A DNA stretch of 64,000 bases from Aureimonas sp. SA4125 (lineage in GTDB: Bacteria > Pseudomonadota > Alphaproteobacteria > Rhizobiales > Rhizobiaceae), in contig NZ_AP025032.1 in the NCBI RefSeq assembly GCF_019973775.1, positions 1,364,001-1,428,000 of the forward strand. Reading direction: 5' to 3'. The position numbers were made by a program, and so were the translations under genes. The notes below the pieces were generated by a model. That model did no database searches and was not told the DNA's origin. It saw nothing but the letters and a program-made list of their open reading frames with translations. Positions 31,608 through 62,211 of this stretch are shown piece after piece; positions within the stretch are counted from its first letter, which is position 1, and the number at the start of each line of letters is the position of its first letter.

Positions 31608-31784
31608 TTGCAGTGCAGCATGGGGAGGTCAGGCACGCTTTCGATGTCTTGCTTTGATGCCAATGAAAAAGGGTCGCGCTTGACTGCAAGCCAGTGGCTG
31701 ATCCGGGTAGTTAGGCGACCGTCCGCCTCGGTCCAAGTTATCGTAAAGCAGCCGGTCCCGGTCGAAGGTGACCGACCTCATCCC

Positions 31785-32344
31785 CTACTCGCTCTGAGCT
31801 TCGTCAGCGAATGCGGAATTAATTGCCTTGAAGAGCTTCTCCGCGCTCGCTGGAGTTCCTGGGGGGAGGTCCGAAGCCGTATTCCACTTGTCGAAGCGGT
31901 TCCACATCTCGCTGAGAACACGTCGCTTATCGAGTCCCGACATTCCGTACCGGGCTTTGAGGACATGTTCGACACGCTTGGTGATCATATCCGATCCGTC
32001 CACGGGCAGGTCATCGAGCTTGATCGCCAGTCCAAGCGCGGTGTTCACGCAGTCGAGGTAGAACTTGTCCGGGAACAGGTCCTCAATGGCAAAATCAGTC
32101 TTCTTCGAACCCGCCGCCTTACCAAGCATGAAAGTCCGGAAGCGCTTGGCCTTCTCTGCGGCGAGCTTGGAAACGTACAGATCGTCAATCTTCACCTTAG
32201 CAGCGTGTCCGGCGGCATCACTGTCAAGGAGGACGCCTGCATCCCAGCCCTGCCCAATCGCGAAGCCTGCATACATCGGCGTCTTCGAGGCACCATGCGC
32301 CGGCCACATATAGATGCGATCCGAGAGTCGTTCTCTGCCAGCCG
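31785..32344 (-). pseudogene. OLD nuclease fragment 4 (C-terminal, TOPRIM second half)
   Basis: This piece encodes residues 424-606 of the rebuilt protein, starting RERLSDRIYMWPAHG. It contains the DxD pair of the TOPRIM fold in GVLLDSDAAGHAA and a helical C-terminal domain, and ends in TAG at 31785-31787. Its 5' end is joined to IS256 copy A; the duplication GCCAGCCG is at 32337-32344. Read alone, the open frame extends into the IS with a spurious N-terminus. Confidence 0.88.
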
Positions 32345-33719
32345 GGTAGTGTCCGCGCTCGTGGTGGAAATTCCGACATTGAAAGGTGTGGCTGAGGCGG
32401 TCACCGGATAGGGCGGCTAAGGTGGAGTTGCGAGACTTCAACCTGACCGGAGAACCCGATGACCGAGGACAGACTACCGCTTGCCGAGCTTTTTGCGAAA
32501 GCCGGGGACGGCGATTTCCTGAGAACGATAGCCGAGAGCGTGATGCAGCTCCTTATGGAGGTCGACGTTGAAGGCATGATCGGCGCCGGGCGCCACGAAC
32601 GGACGCAGGAACGGGCGACTTATCGCAATGGCTACCGCGACCGCTCGCTCGACACGCGGCTCGGCTCGTTGCAGCTTCGGATACCCAAGCTTCGGCAGGG
32701 CAGCTACTTCCCGCCGTTCCTGGAGCCGAGAAAGCTCTCGGAGAAGGCCTTGGTTGCCGTCATTCAGGAAGCTTGGATCAGCGGCGTTTCCACCCGGCGG
32801 GTCGACGATCTGGTACAGGCCATGGGGCTGTCGGGGATCGGCAAGAGCACCGTATCGAAGCTGTGCAAAGACATCGACGAACGCGTCGGCGGCTTCCTCG
32901 ACCGTCCTCTCACTGGCGACTGGCCCTACCTCTGGCTGGATGCGACCTACCTGAAGCAGCGCGAGGGTGGACGCATCGTTTCGGTCGCCGCCATAATCGC
33001 CGTGGCCGTGAACACGGACGGCAAGCGCGAGATCGTCGGCCTTCACATCGGCCCCTCGGAAGCGGAGACGTTTTGGTCGAGCTTCCTCAAGAGCCTCGTG
33101 CGCCGCGGCCTGTCCGGCGTGAAGCTCGTGATCTCGGATGCTCACGAAGGGCTGAAAGCCGCCATTCGCCGGGTGTTCAGCGCCTCCTGGCAGCGCTGCC
33201 GGGTGCATTGGATGCGCAACGCCCTGTCGTATGTCCCGAAGGCGCAGCAGAGCATGGCGGCGGCCGCGCTGCGCCAAGCCTTCGCCCAGCCCGATCGTGC
33301 TAGCGCCAGCCAGGCGCTGCGCCACGTCGCCGACCAGCTTCGGGGAAAGTGTCCAAAGCTCGGGGCCTTCATCGACAACAGCGAGACCGACGTGCTGGCG
33401 CACATGGATTTTCCCAGTCAGCACCGGACCCGGATCCATTCGACGAATTCCCTGGAGCGCCTGAACAAGGAGGTGAAGCGGCGTGCCGACGTCGTCGGAA
33501 TCTTCCCGAACGAGGGATCCATCATCCGGCTCATCGGCGCCGTCCTTCTCGAGGCCAACGACGAATGGCAGATCCAGAACCGCTACATGCAGACCGAACC
33601 CATGGCCGACCTCATGGCCATGGGCAACACTGCAAAACCCGAACAGATTTCCACCGAAGTCGCCTGAAACGGAGCCGCTTCAGCTACACTCAATTTCCAC
33701 CACGTTGACGGACACGACC
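32345..33719 (+). mobile_element. IS256-family insertion sequence, copy A
   Basis: A 1375-bp element with imperfect terminal inverted repeats: GGTAGTGTCCGCGCTCGTGG at the left and, on the other strand, GGTCGTGTCCGTCAACGTGG at the right. It is flanked by the exact 8-bp duplication GCCAGCCG (32337-32344 and 33720-33727), the size expected for IS256. It carries one transposase gene on the plus strand. It is a different isoform from copies B and C, with scattered amino acid changes and a different C-terminus of the transposase. Confidence 0.93.
32459..33667 (+). CDS. IS256-family transposase (copy A)
   Basis: A 402-residue mutator-type DDE transposase, intact. The catalytic aspartates are in YLWLDATYL and LVISDAHEGL, the C-x2-H pair in RCRVHWMRN, and the glutamate in STNSLERLNKE. 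It differs from the copies at 34.5 and 60.9 kb at scattered positions and ends TAKPEQISTEVA instead of KPETVRISTAAA. It has no other gene in the element, so this single product should suffice for movement. Confidence 0.95.
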   Translation: MTEDRLPLAELFAKAGDGDFLRTIAESVMQLLMEVDVEGMIGAGRHERTQERATYRNGYRDRSLDTRLGSLQLRIPKLRQGSYFPPFLEPRKLSEKALVAVIQEAWISGVSTRRVDDLVQAMGLSGIGKSTVSKLCKDIDERVGGFLDRPLTGDWPYLWLDATYLKQREGGRIVSVAAIIAVAVNTDGKREIVGLHIGPSEAETFWSSFLKSLVRRGLSGVKLVISDAHEGLKAAIRRVFSASWQRCRVHWMRNALSYVPKAQQSMAAAALRQAFAQPDRASASQALRHVADQLRGKCPKLGAFIDNSETDVLAHMDFPSQHRTRIHSTNSLERLNKEVKRRADVVGIFPNEGSIIRLIGAVLLEANDEWQIQNRYMQTEPMADLMAMGNTAKPEQISTEVA

Positions 33720-34474
33720 GCCAGCCGCAGCGAGAAGCCCAGACAACTTGTGCAGAATAATCGCGTCGTCACCGCCTTCCACAATGAGCACCTGCCGATT
33801 CCCTAGCAGCCCGCTCTGATCCCCGGTGAGGCCGAGGCTCCGCTCTATGACCGCCATCGGCTCCCGCTGCGCGCTAACGATACCCTGTGTGATGGCGAGG
33901 TGGCCGTCTCTGGTTTCTACGATCCGCACGCGCTCCGGATGGGCAAGCTCGACCATGGAGGCGAGGTGCGTCGTGTAGAGGATGGTGTTGTGCTCAGCGA
34001 GCCGCTCGAAAACCTTCAGAAGGTCGCGTTGTCCCGAGAAGTGCAAATGCACCCCCGGCTCCTCTAGAAGTAATACGCAATCTTTGAATTCGCCTTTGGT
34101 GGCGTGGGTGAACTTCCAGGCGAAGGAAACGTACCAGCGGAAACCCGTTGAGCGCCGGTGGAGGCGCACGGGCATCCCGATTGCCGCGTCTTCCGCAAAA
34201 ATGTTCAGGGTAGGACCGTCGATTTCGATGTCGAAATTGACCTCCTTCTGCTGCCACAAGTTGGCGAACTGGCGGGTCAGGAACTTGGAGGCGGACCGCT
34301 TGTCGAAGGAACGAACCGTACGCCCCTCGGCGGATTGCCCCTTCTTAATGAAATCATTGAGGTCAATGTTTGCGAGGTCGAGAATGACGAGGATCGTCTG
34401 GTCCTCGTTGCTTAATTTGTGTCGGCTTTTATCACCCCCGACGTTGTCGAGCCGCTGCTTGAGTTGATCTAGCT
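33720..34474 (-). pseudogene. OLD nuclease fragment 3 (Walker B and TOPRIM first half)
   Basis: This piece encodes residues 175-423 of the rebuilt protein, from QLKQRLDNVGGDKSRHKL to HKLSGLLAAAG. It includes the ATPase signature region (STGFRWYVSFAW), Walker B with the catalytic glutamates (CVLLLEEPGVHLH), the H-loop and the TOPRIM glutamate (VLIVEGGDD). Both ends are interrupted by IS256 elements in opposite orientation, with duplications GCCAGCCG on one side and ATCTAGCT on the other. Confidence 0.9.
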
Positions 34475-35850
34475 GGTCGTGTCCGTCAACGTGGTGGAAA
34501 TTGGGGTGTAACTGAAGCGGCTCGGTTTCAGGCGGCTGCGGTGGAAATACGTACGGTTTCGGGCTTGGTGCTGTTGGACATGAGTTCGGCCATGGGTTCG
34601 GTCTGCATGTAGCGGTTTTGCGTCTGCCATTCGTCGTTGGCCTCGAGGAGGACGGCGCCGATGAGGCGGATGATGGAGCCCTCGTTCGGGAAGATGCCGA
34701 CGACATCGGCGCGCCGCTTCACCTCCTTGTTCAGGCGCTCCAGGGAATTGGTCGAATGGATCCGGGTCCGATGCTGACCGGGAAAGTCCAGATGCGCCAG
34801 CACGTCGGTCTCGCTGTCGTCGATGAAGCTGCCGAGCTTGGGACACTTTCCCCGGAGCTGGTCGGCGACGTGGCGCAGCGCCTGGGCCGCGCCGGCGCGA
34901 TCGGGTTGGATGAAGGCCTGGCGCAGGGCCGCAGCCGCCATGCTTTGCTGCGCCTTCGGGACATAGGACAGGGCGTTGCGCATCCAGTGGACGCGGCAGC
35001 GCTGCCAGGAGGCGCTGAACACCCGGCGGATGGCGGCCTTCAGCCCTTCATGGGCATCCGATATCACGAGCTTCACGCCGGAAAGGCCGCGGCGCACGAG
35101 GCTCTTGAGGAAGGTCGACCAGAAGGTCTCCGCTTCCGAGGGCCCGATGTGAAGGCCGACGATCTCGCGCTTGCCGTCGGTGTTGACGGCGACAGCGATT
35201 ATTGCCGCCACCGAGACGATACGGCCGCCTTCGCGCTGCTTCAGGTAGGTCGCGTCGAGCCAGAGATAGGGCCAGTCGCCGGTGAGCGGGCGATCGAGAA
35301 AGCCGCCGACGCGGTCGTCGATATCTTTGCACAGCTTCGACACCGTGCTCTTGCCGATCCCCGACAGTCCCATGGCCTGCACCAGATCGTCGACGCGACG
35401 CGTGGACACGCCGCTGATCCAGGCCTCCTGGATGACCGCGACAAGCGCCTTCTCCGAGAGCTTTCTCGGTTCCAGGAACGGCGGAAAGTAGCTGCCTTGT
35501 CGAAGCTTGGGGATGCGAAGCTGCAAGGAGCCAAGCCGGGTATCGAACGAGCGGTCCCGGTAGCCGTTGCGATAGGTCGCCCGTTCCAGGGTGCGTTCAT
35601 GGCGCCCGGCGCCGATCATGCCCTCCACGTCGGCCTCCATGAGAAGCTGCATCACGCTCTCGGCTATCGTCCTCAGGAAATCGCCGTCTCCGGCTTTTGC
35701 CAGAAGCTCGGCAAGCGGTAATCTGTCCTCGGTCATCGGGTGCTCCGGTCAGGTTGAAGTCTCGCAACTCCACCTTAGCCGGCCAATCCGGTGGCCACCT
35801 CCGTCGCACCATCTGAGATCCGAGTTTCCACCACCAGCGCGGACACTACC
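34475..35850 (-). mobile_element. IS256-family insertion sequence, copy B
   Basis: A 1376-bp element in minus orientation with terminal repeats GGTCGTGTCCG (34475 side) and GGTAGTGTCCG (read inward from 35850). It is flanked by the exact duplication ATCTAGCT at 34467-34474 and 35851-35858. Its transposase is identical to that of copy C at 60.8 kb, and all translated frames of the two elements that I compared match, so the DNA is probably identical. Confidence 0.93.
34528..35736 (-). CDS. IS256-family transposase (copy B)
   Basis: A 402-residue intact mutator-type transposase, residue-for-residue the same as the protein at 60950-62158. It keeps the DDE residues (WLDATYL, ISDAHEG, SLERLNKE) and C-x2-H. 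It lies in the OLD nuclease gene on the same strand as that gene, so its own promoter or read-through could also transcribe fragment 3 of that gene. Confidence 0.95.
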   Translation of the reverse strand: MTEDRLPLAELLAKAGDGDFLRTIAESVMQLLMEADVEGMIGAGRHERTLERATYRNGYRDRSFDTRLGSLQLRIPKLRQGSYFPPFLEPRKLSEKALVAVIQEAWISGVSTRRVDDLVQAMGLSGIGKSTVSKLCKDIDDRVGGFLDRPLTGDWPYLWLDATYLKQREGGRIVSVAAIIAVAVNTDGKREIVGLHIGPSEAETFWSTFLKSLVRRGLSGVKLVISDAHEGLKAAIRRVFSASWQRCRVHWMRNALSYVPKAQQSMAAAALRQAFIQPDRAGAAQALRHVADQLRGKCPKLGSFIDDSETDVLAHLDFPGQHRTRIHSTNSLERLNKEVKRRADVVGIFPNEGSIIRLIGAVLLEANDEWQTQNRYMQTEPMAELMSNSTKPETVRISTAAA

Positions 35851-36304
35851 ATCTAGCTCCATTTGCGCGCCAGACATCTTATAATCGTGGATATAGACAA
35901 ATTTCGGCACCTTCGCCTTGGCCCAAGCGACGGCCTTATCCTCATCTAGTGTTCCTTCGGCGAAGTCGTGAACCTTGAAGCGGGCCTGGGCGCCGTAGCC
36001 GCGCCAGAGAACAATCCGGACGGCTTCGGGTAGTGGCGGCGCGGGGAGAGCGTCTTTCCCTTCCTCGACCACGGGCGTGACCAGCGCCACCTCAGCCAAA
36101 TCTTCGATCTCCTCGGTTGACAGGACAAACTGGGCCTTACAGACCAGTTTGCCTGTCGCGGTTTTACGCCCTTCCCATCGGTCGACTGGCCAGTCTTCAT
36201 CAAGGCTGTACTCGGCGCCGGCGATGATTGGATTGAGAGTGTATAGCGCCTCGAAGAGATTGCTTTTGCCAGCCTCGTTTTGACCCACAAAGGCCGTAAT
36301 CCGA
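35851..36304 (-). pseudogene. OLD nuclease fragment 2 (Walker A)
   Basis: This piece encodes residues from about 26 to 174 of the rebuilt protein. It begins ITAFVGQNEAGKSNLFEAL, which contains the Walker A lysine and serine, and ends KMSGAQMELD at IS256 copy B. Its upstream edge is IS1595 with the duplication TAATCCGA at 36297-36304. An apparent start within VGQNEAGKS is not genuine, as the true N-terminus lies beyond the IS. Confidence 0.9.
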
Positions 36305-37888
36305 ATTGCTTATCCCCTTCGCTCAGGCGGTAACCATACCTAGCGAAGCCGCGTGACGGCGGGGGCCCTGTCCCCTATCTCGTCTGGATGTCCGAGGCCC
36401 TGTTCCCCACGCGCTGGAAGAAAGACAAGCCGCCGTCGCTCGAGCGGTTTATGGCCACGTTCCCAGACGACTACGCTTGCGCCGACCACCTTGCCCGAAA
36501 GCGTTGGCCGAACGGGTTCCGGTGCCCGCATTGTGCCTCGCAGAAGGGATGGAAGTTGGAATCCCGCCCCTGGGTCTTCCAATGCTCAGGAAAGGGCGAG
36601 AACCCCGGCTGTCGCAAGCAGACTTCGGTAATCGCCAAGACGGTGATGCACGGCACGCACCTGCCGCTGCGCACATGGTTCATCGCGGCCTACCTCGTGG
36701 CAACCCACTCCAACTCGATCTCCGCCCTCCAGCTCCAGCCCAAGATCGGGGTCGGGTCGTACAAGACCGCCTGGCTACTGCTCCATAAGCTCCGACGCGC
36801 AATGGTCGACCCCGGTCGGTCGCCGCTCGAGGGCAAGGTCGAGATCGACGAAACGAGCTTTCCCCATCGCAAGAGGACGGAGAGCCCGGACGGCGGGCAG
36901 GGAAAAAGCACGGTCGGCAAGGTCTTCGTCATCGGTGCGGTCGAGCATCGCGATGGCAGGAAGTCCGGACGGCTGCGGCTCGCCAAGATCGCCGAGGACC
37001 GGCGCGAGTTCATGGTTCCCTTCGTGCTGGCGAACACGGCGAAGGGATGCACGATGGTCACCGACGGAAGCAGTTCCTACGTCGGCATTCCGGATCGCGG
37101 GCATATCTTGAAAAACCTGAGCAAGGACAATGCACCGCCTGGCCATATCGCCATGGAGCGCATCCACCGCGCCTTCTCCAATTTGAAACGCTGGTCGCTG
37201 GGCACGTTCCACGGCTTCCGGGAGAAGCACGTCGACGCTTACCTCAACGAGTTCGTATTCCGCTGGAACCGACGTCGCTCGTTCCAGACCACGATGGAGC
37301 GCATCCTCGGTATCGGCCAGGCGCTGCCACGCACCACCTACCGGGACATCGTGGGCGATACCTCGGAATGGCGAAGGCAGCATCAAGCCCAGATCTTCAA
37401 GATGACCTCTCCCCTTCGGATGAAGATGGCGAGGGAACTGGCACGCGAAATGCGCATCCCCATCATCGAGGCACTCGCGCAGATCCGCACCGAGACCGAT
37501 AAGCGATACGAGCGTCGCCAACCGAAACGGCCAGCCCTTGCCCTGCGCCGGGAGGGTGATGCGCGCCTGTCCGGCCGTTATCGATATGTCGCCCGGCCAA
37601 CAGTGGCCGCGATCGAGGCGCGCTATCCAAAAGTGGTGCCTGAGCCGAAAGTCGCGGCCCACTGACCGAGGCACGGGCTCGGGTTCCGACATCCAGCGAC
37701 ATGAATCCGAGCAGTTTCTGTGGACCGCAGGCCGGGAAGCGGATCTGTGCGCGACGCGCCGTCGCCGATGGTCTCTCCTACTCCAGCAGCTCGATCGATT
37801 CCCTTCCGCGGAGGCCTCCGGCCCCGCCATCGGCTAGCCTAGGCTTCAGCTATATCTGGTGGTCACCTGAGCAAAGGGGATAAGCAAT
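36305..37888 (+). mobile_element. IS1595-family insertion sequence
   Basis: A 1584-bp element. The left end begins ATTGCTTATCCCCTTCGCTC and the right end, read on the other strand, begins ATTGCTTATCCCCTTTGCTC, with matches continuing through CAGG. The exact 8-bp duplication TAATCCGA flanks it at 36297-36304 and 37889-37896, the size known for this family. It carries one transposase gene and has inserted in codon 26 of the OLD nuclease gene. Confidence 0.93.
36388..37665 (+). CDS. IS1595-family transposase with zinc ribbon and ISXO2-like domain
   Basis: A 425-residue transposase. An N-terminal zinc ribbon (FRCPHCASQKGW ... FQCSGKGENPGC) precedes a helix-turn-helix-like region and an ISXO2-like DDE domain with VEIDETSF, MVTDGSSSYVG and MERIHRAFSNLKRW, followed by YLNEFVFRWNRRRS. 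About 100 residues after the DDE domain form a basic C-terminal extension, longer than in many ISXO2-type transposases. The gene is intact. Confidence 0.93.
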   Translation: MSEALFPTRWKKDKPPSLERFMATFPDDYACADHLARKRWPNGFRCPHCASQKGWKLESRPWVFQCSGKGENPGCRKQTSVIAKTVMHGTHLPLRTWFIAAYLVATHSNSISALQLQPKIGVGSYKTAWLLLHKLRRAMVDPGRSPLEGKVEIDETSFPHRKRTESPDGGQGKSTVGKVFVIGAVEHRDGRKSGRLRLAKIAEDRREFMVPFVLANTAKGCTMVTDGSSSYVGIPDRGHILKNLSKDNAPPGHIAMERIHRAFSNLKRWSLGTFHGFREKHVDAYLNEFVFRWNRRRSFQTTMERILGIGQALPRTTYRDIVGDTSEWRRQHQAQIFKMTSPLRMKMARELAREMRIPIIEALAQIRTETDKRYERRQPKRPALALRREGDARLSGRYRYVARPTVAAIEARYPKVVPEPKVAAH

Positions 37889-37964
37889 TAATCCGATTGG
37901 CGTTGATCCAGCCGGAGTCAATTATGTTGCGATAGTTTGTGACCTGAAAGCCTTCAAACTGCAT
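37889..37964 (-). pseudogene. OLD nuclease fragment 1 (N-terminus)
   Basis: An ATG at 37962-37964 opens the frame MQFEGFQVTNYRNIIDSGWI up to INANRI, where IS1595 enters. This is the usual first strand and helix of SMC-like/OLD ATPases (x-F-x-N-Y-R-x-I). Joined across the IS after removing one TAATCCGA copy it continues directly into TAFVGQNEAGKS. The piece is too short to be found by length alone and is what proves the start of the gene. Confidence 0.88.
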
Positions 37965-38280
37965 TACGGCCTGCCCTTGAGTTGCTATGACTTTGTCGGA
38001 GCAAGATGGCGTGCCAGAAGACCAAGATCAAGCCGCGCTCAACGACTTAATTGGATGGGCTTGGACTTTATAAAACTGGTCTTCAGATGGGGTCGGGATT
38101 CGAGTCGCTGAAAAGAGTAATGCCACAGGGCTGAGTTGACGACCTCGGCGAGAACTTGCCAAGTGGGCATGACAGAGGTCATCTTTTGGGATGCCACAGT
38201 GCGCCAGCGAATGGCCAGGAAGGGTCGAAAGCTGCCGTCCAATGGTTTTTCAGCGGTCGCCGCAAATGCGCCGCCTTCAC
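37965..38280. other. AT-richer region upstream of the OLD nuclease gene
   Basis: About 316 bases between the OLD start and the MFS gene. The DNA is clearly less GC-rich than the neighbouring MFS gene. A minus-strand frame of 81 codons (38039-38284, GTG start touching the MFS stop) and short plus-strand frames are open, but none shows a recognisable domain. It probably holds the promoter of the transferred nuclease gene and the left-over boundary of the acquired segment. Confidence 0.4.
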
Positions 38281-39534
38281 TCACTCCGCCGGCGTCTGCT
38301 CGGCCAGATCCGCCCGCGGATCGAGCGCAAAGCTTGCCGGCGTCTGCGTCCGGGCGAGGGGCGTCGTCCTGAAGTCGCCGCGTTCTTCCACCGGCGGGGC
38401 GGTGCGGCGGAAGGTGCGGTAGAAGGCGTAGAAGGCGAAGATCGCGTGCGCGGTGCCGGTGGCGACGAAGATGCCGGAGGGGCCGAACGTCTCCATCAGC
38501 CAGGCGGCCAGCAGCGGGCCGCCCATCGTGCCGAAGCCGTAGAGGATGAGAAGACCGCCCGAAACTTTGACAAAATCCTCCGGCTTGGCATAGTCGTTGG
38601 CATGCGCGACGGTCAGGGAATAGGCGGGATAGATCACCCCGCCGAGGCCGAAGGCGATGGCGAACAGCACCAGCGGATCGTGGCTGCGCAGGGCCATGCC
38701 GACGACGGCGATGCCGACGCCGACGAGACCGGCGACCGTCATGACATAGCGGCGATCGACACGGTCCGAGAACCGGCCGAGCGGGTACTGGAAGACGATG
38801 CCGCCGGCCATGGTGGCGGCGAGCAGCGTCGCGATCTCGGTGTTGGTGAAGCCGAAGCGCTGCCCGAGCACCGGCGACATGTTGTTCCAGGCGCCCGACA
38901 GGACGCCCGCCAGAAAGACGCCGACGGCTGCGGCCGGTGAATTGCGGTAGATCATCGCAAGGTCGAGCGAGGTCGTCGTCAGGGGTTTGGGCGAGGGCGC
39001 CTTCGACAGCGCCGTCGGGATGACGGCGAGGGCGAAGAGGATGGCGCAGAGCATGAAGGGCGTCGTCAGTTCGGGCCGCGTCGCCGCCATGATGTACTGG
39101 CCGCCGATCATCGCCGTCATCGAGACGATCATGTAGATCGAAAAGATGCGCCCGCGCGTCTCGTTGGTGACGCGCTCGTTCAGCCAGCTCTCGATGATCA
39201 TGTAGCTGCCGGCCAGCGCGAATCCCGCAATGCCGCGGATCAGGATCCAGGCGATCGGGTGGACGATCATCGCCAGCATCAGCACGCCGATGGCGAGAAG
39301 GGCGCAGAGGCTGGAGAAGGTCCTGACATGGCCCGCCTGGCGCACGATCAGCGGCACCACGAGGCAGCCGACGGTGAAGGCGATGGCGTAGCCCGTGCCC
39401 ATGAAGCCGATCTCATAGCTCGACCAGCCCTCGATCGAGCCGCGCACCGGCAGGAGAATGCCCTGCAGACCCGCGCCCGCCATCACGAAGAAGGTGGAGA
39501 TCAGGAGGGAGACGATCGGCAGCAGCGCGGACAT
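38281..39534 (-). CDS. MFS transporter
   Basis: A 417-residue permease with 12 hydrophobic segments. The loop-2 region and the central motif GIVFQYPLGRFSDRVDRRYV (a G-x-L-a-D-r-x-g-R-R variant) mark the major facilitator superfamily, of the YcaD/UMF1-like type common in alphaproteobacteria. The substrate is unknown. The stop codon is the first base group after the acquired OLD nuclease region. Confidence 0.9.
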   Translation of the reverse strand: MSALLPIVSLLISTFFVMAGAGLQGILLPVRGSIEGWSSYEIGFMGTGYAIAFTVGCLVVPLIVRQAGHVRTFSSLCALLAIGVLMLAMIVHPIAWILIRGIAGFALAGSYMIIESWLNERVTNETRGRIFSIYMIVSMTAMIGGQYIMAATRPELTTPFMLCAILFALAVIPTALSKAPSPKPLTTTSLDLAMIYRNSPAAAVGVFLAGVLSGAWNNMSPVLGQRFGFTNTEIATLLAATMAGGIVFQYPLGRFSDRVDRRYVMTVAGLVGVGIAVVGMALRSHDPLVLFAIAFGLGGVIYPAYSLTVAHANDYAKPEDFVKVSGGLLILYGFGTMGGPLLAAWLMETFGPSGIFVATGTAHAIFAFYAFYRTFRRTAPPVEERGDFRTTPLARTQTPASFALDPRADLAEQTPAE

Positions 39535-60835: not shown

Positions 60836-62211
60836 GGTAGTGTCCGCGCTGGTGGTGGAAACTCGGATCTCAGATGGTGCGACGGAGGTGGCCACCGGAT
60901 TGGCCGGCTAAGGTGGAGTTGCGAGACTTCAACCTGACCGGAGCACCCGATGACCGAGGACAGATTACCGCTTGCCGAGCTTCTGGCAAAAGCCGGAGAC
61001 GGCGATTTCCTGAGGACGATAGCCGAGAGCGTGATGCAGCTTCTCATGGAGGCCGACGTGGAGGGCATGATCGGCGCCGGGCGCCATGAACGCACCCTGG
61101 AACGGGCGACCTATCGCAACGGCTACCGGGACCGCTCGTTCGATACCCGGCTTGGCTCCTTGCAGCTTCGCATCCCCAAGCTTCGACAAGGCAGCTACTT
61201 TCCGCCGTTCCTGGAACCGAGAAAGCTCTCGGAGAAGGCGCTTGTCGCGGTCATCCAGGAGGCCTGGATCAGCGGCGTGTCCACGCGTCGCGTCGACGAT
61301 CTGGTGCAGGCCATGGGACTGTCGGGGATCGGCAAGAGCACGGTGTCGAAGCTGTGCAAAGATATCGACGACCGCGTCGGCGGCTTTCTCGATCGCCCGC
61401 TCACCGGCGACTGGCCCTATCTCTGGCTCGACGCGACCTACCTGAAGCAGCGCGAAGGCGGCCGTATCGTCTCGGTGGCGGCAATAATCGCTGTCGCCGT
61501 CAACACCGACGGCAAGCGCGAGATCGTCGGCCTTCACATCGGGCCCTCGGAAGCGGAGACCTTCTGGTCGACCTTCCTCAAGAGCCTCGTGCGCCGCGGC
61601 CTTTCCGGCGTGAAGCTCGTGATATCGGATGCCCATGAAGGGCTGAAGGCCGCCATCCGCCGGGTGTTCAGCGCCTCCTGGCAGCGCTGCCGCGTCCACT
61701 GGATGCGCAACGCCCTGTCCTATGTCCCGAAGGCGCAGCAAAGCATGGCGGCTGCGGCCCTGCGCCAGGCCTTCATCCAACCCGATCGCGCCGGCGCGGC
61801 CCAGGCGCTGCGCCACGTCGCCGACCAGCTCCGGGGAAAGTGTCCCAAGCTCGGCAGCTTCATCGACGACAGCGAGACCGACGTGCTGGCGCATCTGGAC
61901 TTTCCCGGTCAGCATCGGACCCGGATCCATTCGACCAATTCCCTGGAGCGCCTGAACAAGGAGGTGAAGCGGCGCGCCGATGTCGTCGGCATCTTCCCGA
62001 ACGAGGGCTCCATCATCCGCCTCATCGGCGCCGTCCTCCTCGAGGCCAACGACGAATGGCAGACGCAAAACCGCTACATGCAGACCGAACCCATGGCCGA
62101 ACTCATGTCCAACAGCACCAAGCCCGAAACCGTACGTATTTCCACCGCAGCCGCCTGAAACCGAGCCGCTTCAGTTACACCCCAATTTCCACCACGTTGA
62201 CGGACACGACC
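60836..62211 (+). mobile_element. IS256-family insertion sequence, copy C
   Basis: A 1376-bp element with terminal repeats GGTAGTGTCCG and (inverted) GGTCGTGTCCG, flanked by GAGCCGGCG at 60827-60835 and 62212-62220. Its transposase is identical to that of copy B at 34.5 kb, which lies in the opposite orientation about 25 kb away. It interrupts the histidine kinase gene. Confidence 0.93.
60950..62158 (+). CDS. IS256-family transposase (copy C)
   Basis: A 402-residue intact transposase, identical to copy B in every residue. It keeps the DDE triad (WLDATYL, ISDAHEG, SLERLNKE) and the CRVHW C-x2-H. Identity between two copies 25 kb apart implies very recent transposition. Confidence 0.95.
   Translation: MTEDRLPLAELLAKAGDGDFLRTIAESVMQLLMEADVEGMIGAGRHERTLERATYRNGYRDRSFDTRLGSLQLRIPKLRQGSYFPPFLEPRKLSEKALVAVIQEAWISGVSTRRVDDLVQAMGLSGIGKSTVSKLCKDIDDRVGGFLDRPLTGDWPYLWLDATYLKQREGGRIVSVAAIIAVAVNTDGKREIVGLHIGPSEAETFWSTFLKSLVRRGLSGVKLVISDAHEGLKAAIRRVFSASWQRCRVHWMRNALSYVPKAQQSMAAAALRQAFIQPDRAGAAQALRHVADQLRGKCPKLGSFIDDSETDVLAHLDFPGQHRTRIHSTNSLERLNKEVKRRADVVGIFPNEGSIIRLIGAVLLEANDEWQTQNRYMQTEPMAELMSNSTKPETVRISTAAA

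What the first reader, a model, noticed from the sequence alone, without database searches (positions are those of the whole stretch)
31785..37964. OLD-family nuclease gene cut by three insertion sequences but still open when they are removed
Four separated pieces join into one frame of 606 codons after removal of two IS256 elements, one IS1595 element and one copy of each 8-bp target duplication (GCCAGCCG, ATCTAGCT, TAATCCGA). No frameshift or stop has accumulated, and Walker A (30-37), Walker B (305-312) and TOPRIM residues E404, D461 and D463 all survive in the pieces. The OLD family is known for phage-defence nucleases. Three independent insertions in a single 1.8-kb gene, while the surrounding ~20 kb on each side has none, suggests either selection against this nuclease or a hot spot. 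The rebuilt protein could be a working defence gene worth comparing with class 1 OLD proteins.
Basis: partly seen in the sequence, partly recalled or inferred. Interest (0 to 1): 0.85.

Follow-up and report, generated by a model that had tools for sequence, protein, structure and literature searches.

The report
OLD-type gene broken by three insertions
A bacterium picked up an OLD-type, probably anti-phage, ATPase-nuclease gene from outside and then lost its use when three jumping elements landed in it during a recent burst; it is a clear example of an ordinary process.

Summary
Window 31785-37964 (minus strand) holds one OLD-type ATPase/Toprim gene in four pieces, cut by two different IS256-family elements and one IS1595 element, each flanked by an exact 8-bp duplication. 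Kept apart, the pieces align gap-free to residues 1-25, 24-174, 173-423 and 422-606 of an intact 608-residue homologue and keep 164 of 164 residues invariant in a 48-member alignment.

Motifs, fold (middling model) and lack of a helicase neighbour fit Class 1 OLD; intact relatives sit among phage genes or near defence genes. The gene looks foreign: 57-58% GC against 66%, absent from the same locus in one sister genome.

Neither a hot spot nor selection is needed. The chromosome holds 70 IS256-family places; all 19 other whole copies fetched are identical to one element, so the burst is recent and the frame had no time to decay. Three hits in one dispensable gene are plausible under neutrality, given an assumed limited target. 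Intact addA and addB genes argue against a P2-Old-like conflict. Ordinary; low interest.

The parts
37889..37964 (-). OLD gene piece 1 (5' end, start codon at 37964, residues 1-25)
35851..36304 (-). OLD gene piece 2 (Walker A; residues 24-174)
33720..34474 (-). OLD gene piece 3 (Walker B, H loop, E404 and D408 of the Toprim motif; residues 173-423)
31785..32344 (-). OLD gene piece 4 (Toprim D461/D463, D504/E508/D509, K560, stop; residues 422-606)
32345..33719 (+). IS256-family element A, 1375 bp, transposase 32459-33667 (+)
   Evidence: 100% DNA identity to 19 of 19 other whole copies fetched
34475..35850 (-). IS256-family element B, 1376 bp, 88.9% identical to A, transposase 34528-35736 (-)
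   Evidence: 100% identical to the copy at 60836-62211
36305..37888 (+). IS1595-family element, 1584 bp, transposase 36388-37665 (+)
   Evidence: identical copies elsewhere in the genome
32337..32344 (.). target duplication GCCAGCCG, left copy
33720..33727 (.). target duplication GCCAGCCG, right copy
34467..34474 (.). target duplication ATCTAGCT, left copy
35851..35858 (.). target duplication ATCTAGCT, right copy
36297..36304 (.). target duplication TAATCCGA, left copy
37889..37896 (.). target duplication TAATCCGA, right copy
31621..38282 (.). segment without an aligned counterpart between the ilvD-like gene and the MFS gene of sister genome G003 (about 2.3 kb net of the elements)

Best explanation
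A foreign, single-gene, Class-1-like OLD ATPase/Toprim nuclease (probable anti-phage or phage-phage interference function) was acquired between an ilvD-like gene (label recalled) and an MFS gene in an Aureimonas-group bacterium. It was then inactivated by three separate recent transpositions during a genome-wide IS256/IS1595 burst. After the first hit the gene was dead weight, so the later hits were neutral. Shown: the pieces, elements, duplications, homology, deviant GC, the locus without the gene in one sister genome, and recency of the elements. Inferred: the defence function, the neutrality of the later hits and the order of events. In an intact relative the ABC-type ATPase head would respond to a phage-linked signal and license a two-metal Toprim nuclease; this is inferred from part of the Class 1 OLD literature.
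For: Exact 8-bp duplications at all three elements; pieces that meet on P0022 without gaps and keep 164 of 164 invariant residues; purifying selection in the gene's past, pN/pS 0.15-0.32; GC of pieces 2-4 57.3-58.1% against 66.2% for the window; in sister genome G003 the aligned flanks of the same two neighbours are 324 bp apart, with no OLD gene; P0022, named Cereibacter azotoformans (another bacterial order, recalled), is closer in all four pieces than the same-genus A. leprariae protein; 70 chromosomal IS256-family places and identical element copies; first-ranked fold match 6p74, TsOLD; intact relatives among phage genes or near defence genes.
Against: Three hits in one gene is unlikely if the whole chromosome is an equally open target (0.024-0.029 for 75 insertions); the 1-Mb target that makes it likely is an assumption. 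IS256 gaps of 7 kb or less are more common than random (14 against 6.5, P 0.003): mild clustering of unproven cause. No activity of this family was tested. The model is middling (pLDDT 74.6, pTM 0.49), the 6p74 match has rmsd 10.9 and ties with SMC/PtuA heads, and no Pfam Toprim model scored. In YbjD the Toprim domain is dispensable and a Walker A mutant keeps its effect (PMC13261556), so the proposed mechanism does not hold for every Class 1 OLD.
Confidence: 0.85

Rival explanations
1. Selection against the OLD nuclease: it was costly in this host (auto-toxicity, or conflict with the host's DNA-end machinery as for P2 Old in recBC mutants), and insertions were favoured.
For: Three different elements in 1.8 kb; P2 Old kills recBC-deficient E. 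coli (PMC7049728 and PMC10568477, passages); YbjD overproduction is somewhat toxic (PMC13261556, part 1 of 2 of the text).
Against: Selection can explain the first hit but not the second and third. The host's addA and addB are intact and adjacent, so a P2-type conflict has no visible cause. The gene's past shows purifying selection.
Confidence: 0.08
2. A target hot spot for IS256/IS1595 in this gene (local sequence or structure attracts transposition).
For: Three elements of three kinds close together; IS256-family places are mildly clustered genome-wide.
Against: By eye the three 8-bp targets share no sequence, nor do those of the other copies listed (no motif test was run); two unrelated IS families are involved; nearby copies occur elsewhere too.
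Confidence: 0.05
3. The pieces are separate small genes, or the arrangement is a switchable (phase-variable) OLD gene.
For: Some IS256 insertions elsewhere are known to revert (recalled).
Against: All four pieces match consecutive parts of one protein in 6 of 6 homologues compared; Walker A and Walker B lie on different pieces, and three precise losses would be needed.
Confidence: 0.02

Closest known systems
Class 1 OLD nucleases (Thermus scotoductus OLD, PDB 6P74; P2 Old; E. coli YbjD/OldB)
   Same: ABC-type ATPase followed by a Toprim-like acidic motif; E404, D408, D461, D463, D504, E508, D509 and K560 invariant; no helicase-size gene next downstream; first-ranked structural match 6p74; relatives among phage genes, as for P2 old.
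   Different: Only 13-18% identity in the structural alignments to 6p74; the A. leprariae copy overlaps an AbiTii-like gene; one copy follows a PtuA/PtuB-like pair by about 0.5 kb, while Class 1 genes were said not to lie near other defence genes (PMC10568477, passages). The window copy is broken.
Gabija GajA (Class 2 OLD)
   Same: Same domain order and related fold; piece 3 alone scores better to GajA models (1.5e-10) than to Old (1.5e-6) in PADLOC.
   Different: No helicase-size gene next downstream in the window or in 5 of 5 intact loci with downstream DNA; for the whole A. leprariae protein Old (8.9e-16) is ahead of GajA (9.1e-14).
PARIS AriA / AriAB and Septu PtuA ATPases
   Same: Related ATPase head; AriA scores as well as Old for the whole protein (1.1e-15, 56.4 bits, against 8.9e-16, 55.8 bits), and a fused AriAB model also scores (1.6e-9).
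   Different: The best AriA stretch lies in the ATPase part (residues 249-333), while the best Old stretch runs into the Toprim region, to residue 464. PARIS membership was not tested further.

Membership tests
OLD family (ATPase-Toprim) | N-terminal ABC-type ATPase with Walker A and Walker B | tested here: met
   PF13175 over its cut-off in piece 3 and in the intact orthologue; K36 and E309/E310 present in pieces 2 and 3
OLD family (ATPase-Toprim) | C-terminal Toprim domain with conserved metal-binding acidic residues | tested here: met
   E404, D408, D461, D463, D504, E508 and D509 present in pieces 3 and 4 and invariant in 48 members. Against: no Pfam Toprim model scored, piece 4 alone hit no Pfam, PADLOC or NCBIfam model, and most structural rows cover residues 1-389 only
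[quoted passage not shown]
   ORF lists of the window and of 5 of 5 intact loci with downstream DNA (L041, L056, L057, L073, L079) show none of helicase size next to the gene; the first large one on that strand in L079 is a head-tail adaptor. No helicase profile was run. L058 and L080 end at the gene and were not counted
Class 1 OLD | Isolated single gene | tested here: inconclusive
   Single in the window; in A. leprariae it overlaps an AbiTii-like gene, not found in 5 of 5 other loci checked, of which L058 has almost no downstream DNA and L065 is a 42% relative; L079 and L080 were not checked
Class 1 OLD | Lack of the Class 2 helical insert in Toprim | not tested
   no comparison of that region was made
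Class 2 OLD (Gabija) | Downstream GajB helicase | tested here: not met
   same ORF lists as for Class 1; no helicase profile was run
Class 3 OLD (retron) | Adjacent reverse transcriptase and ncRNA | not tested
   no reverse transcriptase or Rfam search was run; the window neighbours are an ilvD-like gene (label recalled) and an MFS gene
PARIS (AriA/AriAB) | AriA-type ATPase with AriB Toprim partner or fusion | not tested
   only PADLOC scores are at hand
Anti-phage defence function | Protects against a phage | not testable with these tools
   needs a plaque assay with an intact relative
IS256 and IS1595 families | Family transposase, terminal inverted repeats, 8-bp target duplications | tested here: met

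The most novel reading that the evidence does not exclude
This OLD clade (48 aligned members, 61-91% identical to P0022, those with a named source mostly alphaproteobacterial) is a distinct, horizontally mobile Class 1 lineage whose carriage is costly enough that hosts repeatedly inactivate it by transposition, so that IS-disrupted remnants are a signature of autoimmunity or of loss of the phage it guarded against.
Probability: 0.08. Interest if true: 0.5.

Novelty: new member of a known kind. Interest (0 to 1): 0.22.

Why it matters
It shows cleanly how a newly acquired defence-type gene is lost during an IS burst. It also points to a Class-1-like OLD lineage with intact copies (A. leprariae, a protein named Cereibacter azotoformans, Agrobacterium rubi) that could be assayed. 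Evidence on isolated Class 1 OLD proteins is scarce: the 2023 review passages say only P2 Old was established to protect against a phage (PMC10568477); a 2026 report adds YbjD and cites a Vibrio cholerae OLD (PMC13261556, part 1 of 2).

Tried and rejected
Hot spot by sequence: by eye the three 8-bp targets have nothing in common, and the duplications of the other copies listed are as varied; no motif test was run. P2-Old-like conflict through lost end-processing: addA and addB are intact in this genome. Two-gene OLD plus AbiTii-like system: the partner was found in 1 of 6 same-genus genomes, A. leprariae, in 0 of 5 other OLD loci checked, and in 0 of 385 class genomes (which the tool says shows nothing without a known positive). 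Plasmid and phage collections held only relatives under 60% identity (85 and 1 records). The upstream 321 bp occurs once in the genome, and it and the 105 bp downstream have no match in 14 fetched loci. The PDB sequence search gave nothing convincing (best E 0.095); the fold search did. PADLOC ranking does not settle the OLD class. VIA-align rows lie within one Z unit of each other near the top.

Counting choices: of 80 IS256 rows I dropped 5 on the second contig, 3 fragment continuations and 2 weak rows, leaving 70; these include a 58%-identical element. DNA identity and duplications were read on 20 of those 80 rows (L008-L027, one of them the window copy); 18 of 20 had an exact 8-bp duplication, L019 and L020 did not at the frame used. 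Of the five other matches to the IS1595 transposase, L028, L029 and L031 were 100% over 1584 nt, L032 100% over 1567 nt, and L033 (28% protein identity) gave no DNA match; L029 and L032 showed no exact duplication at that frame. Paper searches (listings only: 15 of 17, 10 of 27, 10 of 20,868, 2 of 2, 8 of 36 papers) showed no title or abstract start on this locus. L042, the parts of L060-L062 away from the ilvD match, L081, and the hits beyond their listing were not studied further.
Full report
Observation. On the minus strand of 31785-37964 there is one gene in four pieces. Between them lie an IS256-family element at 32345-33719, a second and different IS256-family element at 34475-35850 (88.9% identical to the first), and an IS1595-family element at 36305-37888. 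Transposase families are clear (Pfam and NCBIfam). Terminal inverted repeats and exact 8-bp target duplications are present at all three. Translated apart, each piece is open. The pieces align without gaps to residues 1-25, 24-174, 173-423 and 422-606 of an intact 608-residue homologue, P0022, named Cereibacter azotoformans in the database, at 92, 73, 91 and 84% identity. All 164 columns invariant in 48 aligned family members are kept; leave-one-out, 47 of those members miss 0-6 each (mean 1.0). The gene's past was under purifying selection: pN/pS summed over the pieces is 0.15-0.32 against five homologues, with synonymous sites near saturation.

Origin. The host is of the Aureimonas group: same-genus genome G004 carries the orthologue on an 84,488-bp contig, and an A. 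leprariae record of that length encodes the identical protein. Pieces 2-4 have 57.3-58.1% GC against 66.2% for the window and about 67% for both neighbours. In sister genome G003, 92% identical at the ilvD-like gene, the aligned flanks are 324 bp apart and no OLD match was found; the corresponding window segment runs from 31621 to 38282. In the other three fetched same-genus loci only the ilvD side aligned, so the empty locus rests on one genome. Of five other same-genus genomes only G004 has a match to piece 3 (G002 is 65% complete). Among 100 genomes including the window's own, 7 have any match to piece 3, several weak. So the gene was most likely acquired. Intact relatives lie among phage genes: in A. 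leprariae in the same stretch as a terminase and a tape-measure gene, in L073 beside tail genes and a DNA methyltransferase, in L079 between terminase and head-tail adaptor, in L080 after a head protein. In Agrobacterium rubi the copy follows a PtuA/PtuB-like pair by about 0.5 kb, and in Novosphingobium silvae an RmrA-like gene lies about 3 kb upstream.

Why three insertions. The genome gives 80 matches to the IS256 transposase, reduced to 70 chromosomal places after dropping second-contig, fragment and weak rows, and five full IS1595 copies. Element A is identical over 1375 bp to 19 of 19 other whole copies fetched; element B is identical over 1376 bp to the copy at 60836-62211; the IS1595 element is identical over 1584 bp to three others and over 1567 bp to a fourth. 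The burst is therefore recent, which by itself explains the absence of frameshifts or stops. With 75 insertions spread evenly over the chromosome, some 1821-nt stretch takes three or more in 2.4-2.9% of simulations; if only 1 Mb is free for insertion, which is an assumption, in 44%. Once the first element had broken the gene, further hits cost nothing. IS256 places are mildly clustered genome-wide (gaps of 3 kb or less: 4 observed, 2.9 expected, P 0.33; 7 kb: 14 against 6.5, P 0.003; 15 kb: 20 against 13.2, P 0.017). A special hot spot is not needed, and by eye the target duplications share no sequence. Selection against the gene is not excluded for the first hit, but a P2-Old-type conflict with missing RecBCD/AddAB has no support here, since addA and addB are intact and adjacent.

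Mechanism. For an intact relative: the ATPase head binds ATP and, on a phage-linked signal, licenses a two-metal Toprim nuclease that harms phage or host nucleic acid. The steps are taken from Class 1 OLD work: nuclease activity of P2 Old and TsOLD and ATPase/Toprim residues needed for P2 Old killing (PMC7049728 and PMC10568477, passages), and activation of P2 Old by RecBC inhibition followed by tRNA cleavage as cited in PMC13261556 (part 1 of 2). The same report shows that YbjD works without its Toprim domain and with a Walker A mutation, so the mechanism may differ within Class 1. None of this was tested here. In the window genome the gene cannot make this protein: Walker A and Walker B lie on different pieces with an element between them, and no intact copy turned up elsewhere in the genome.

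Verdict. A well-observed, correctly described broken gene; a new member of a known kind; ordinary in its cause.

Noticed in passing
L035:17-949 and 946-2781 (A. leprariae, also L041:13209-15973): The intact orthologue overlaps by 4 bp a downstream 310-aa AbiTii-like gene (PF18864 E 2.8e-4, below its cut-off; PADLOC AbiTii 1.3e-5), near phage genes; 22 homologues of the partner were found among 7997 scored candidates.
   Followed up: partly
L057:2951-7839 (Agrobacterium rubi): The OLD gene follows a PtuA/PtuB-like (PDC-M01A/B) pair by about 0.5 kb, unlike the statement that Class 1 OLD genes do not lie near defence genes.
   Followed up: partly
L079:3064-10707: An OLD-clade gene sits between a terminase and a head-tail adaptor gene of a phage-like contig.
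   Followed up: no
G000 (whole genome): Heavy IS256 load: 80 matches to the transposase, 51 of them 100% identical over 402 residues, one of these on the 131.8-kb second contig.
   Followed up: partly
60836-62211: A further IS256-family element, identical to element B.
   Followed up: no
L058:1745-2815: An RmrA-like gene (PADLOC E 3e-145) about 3 kb upstream of an OLD-clade gene whose frame ends early (475 aa) near the contig end.
   Followed up: no
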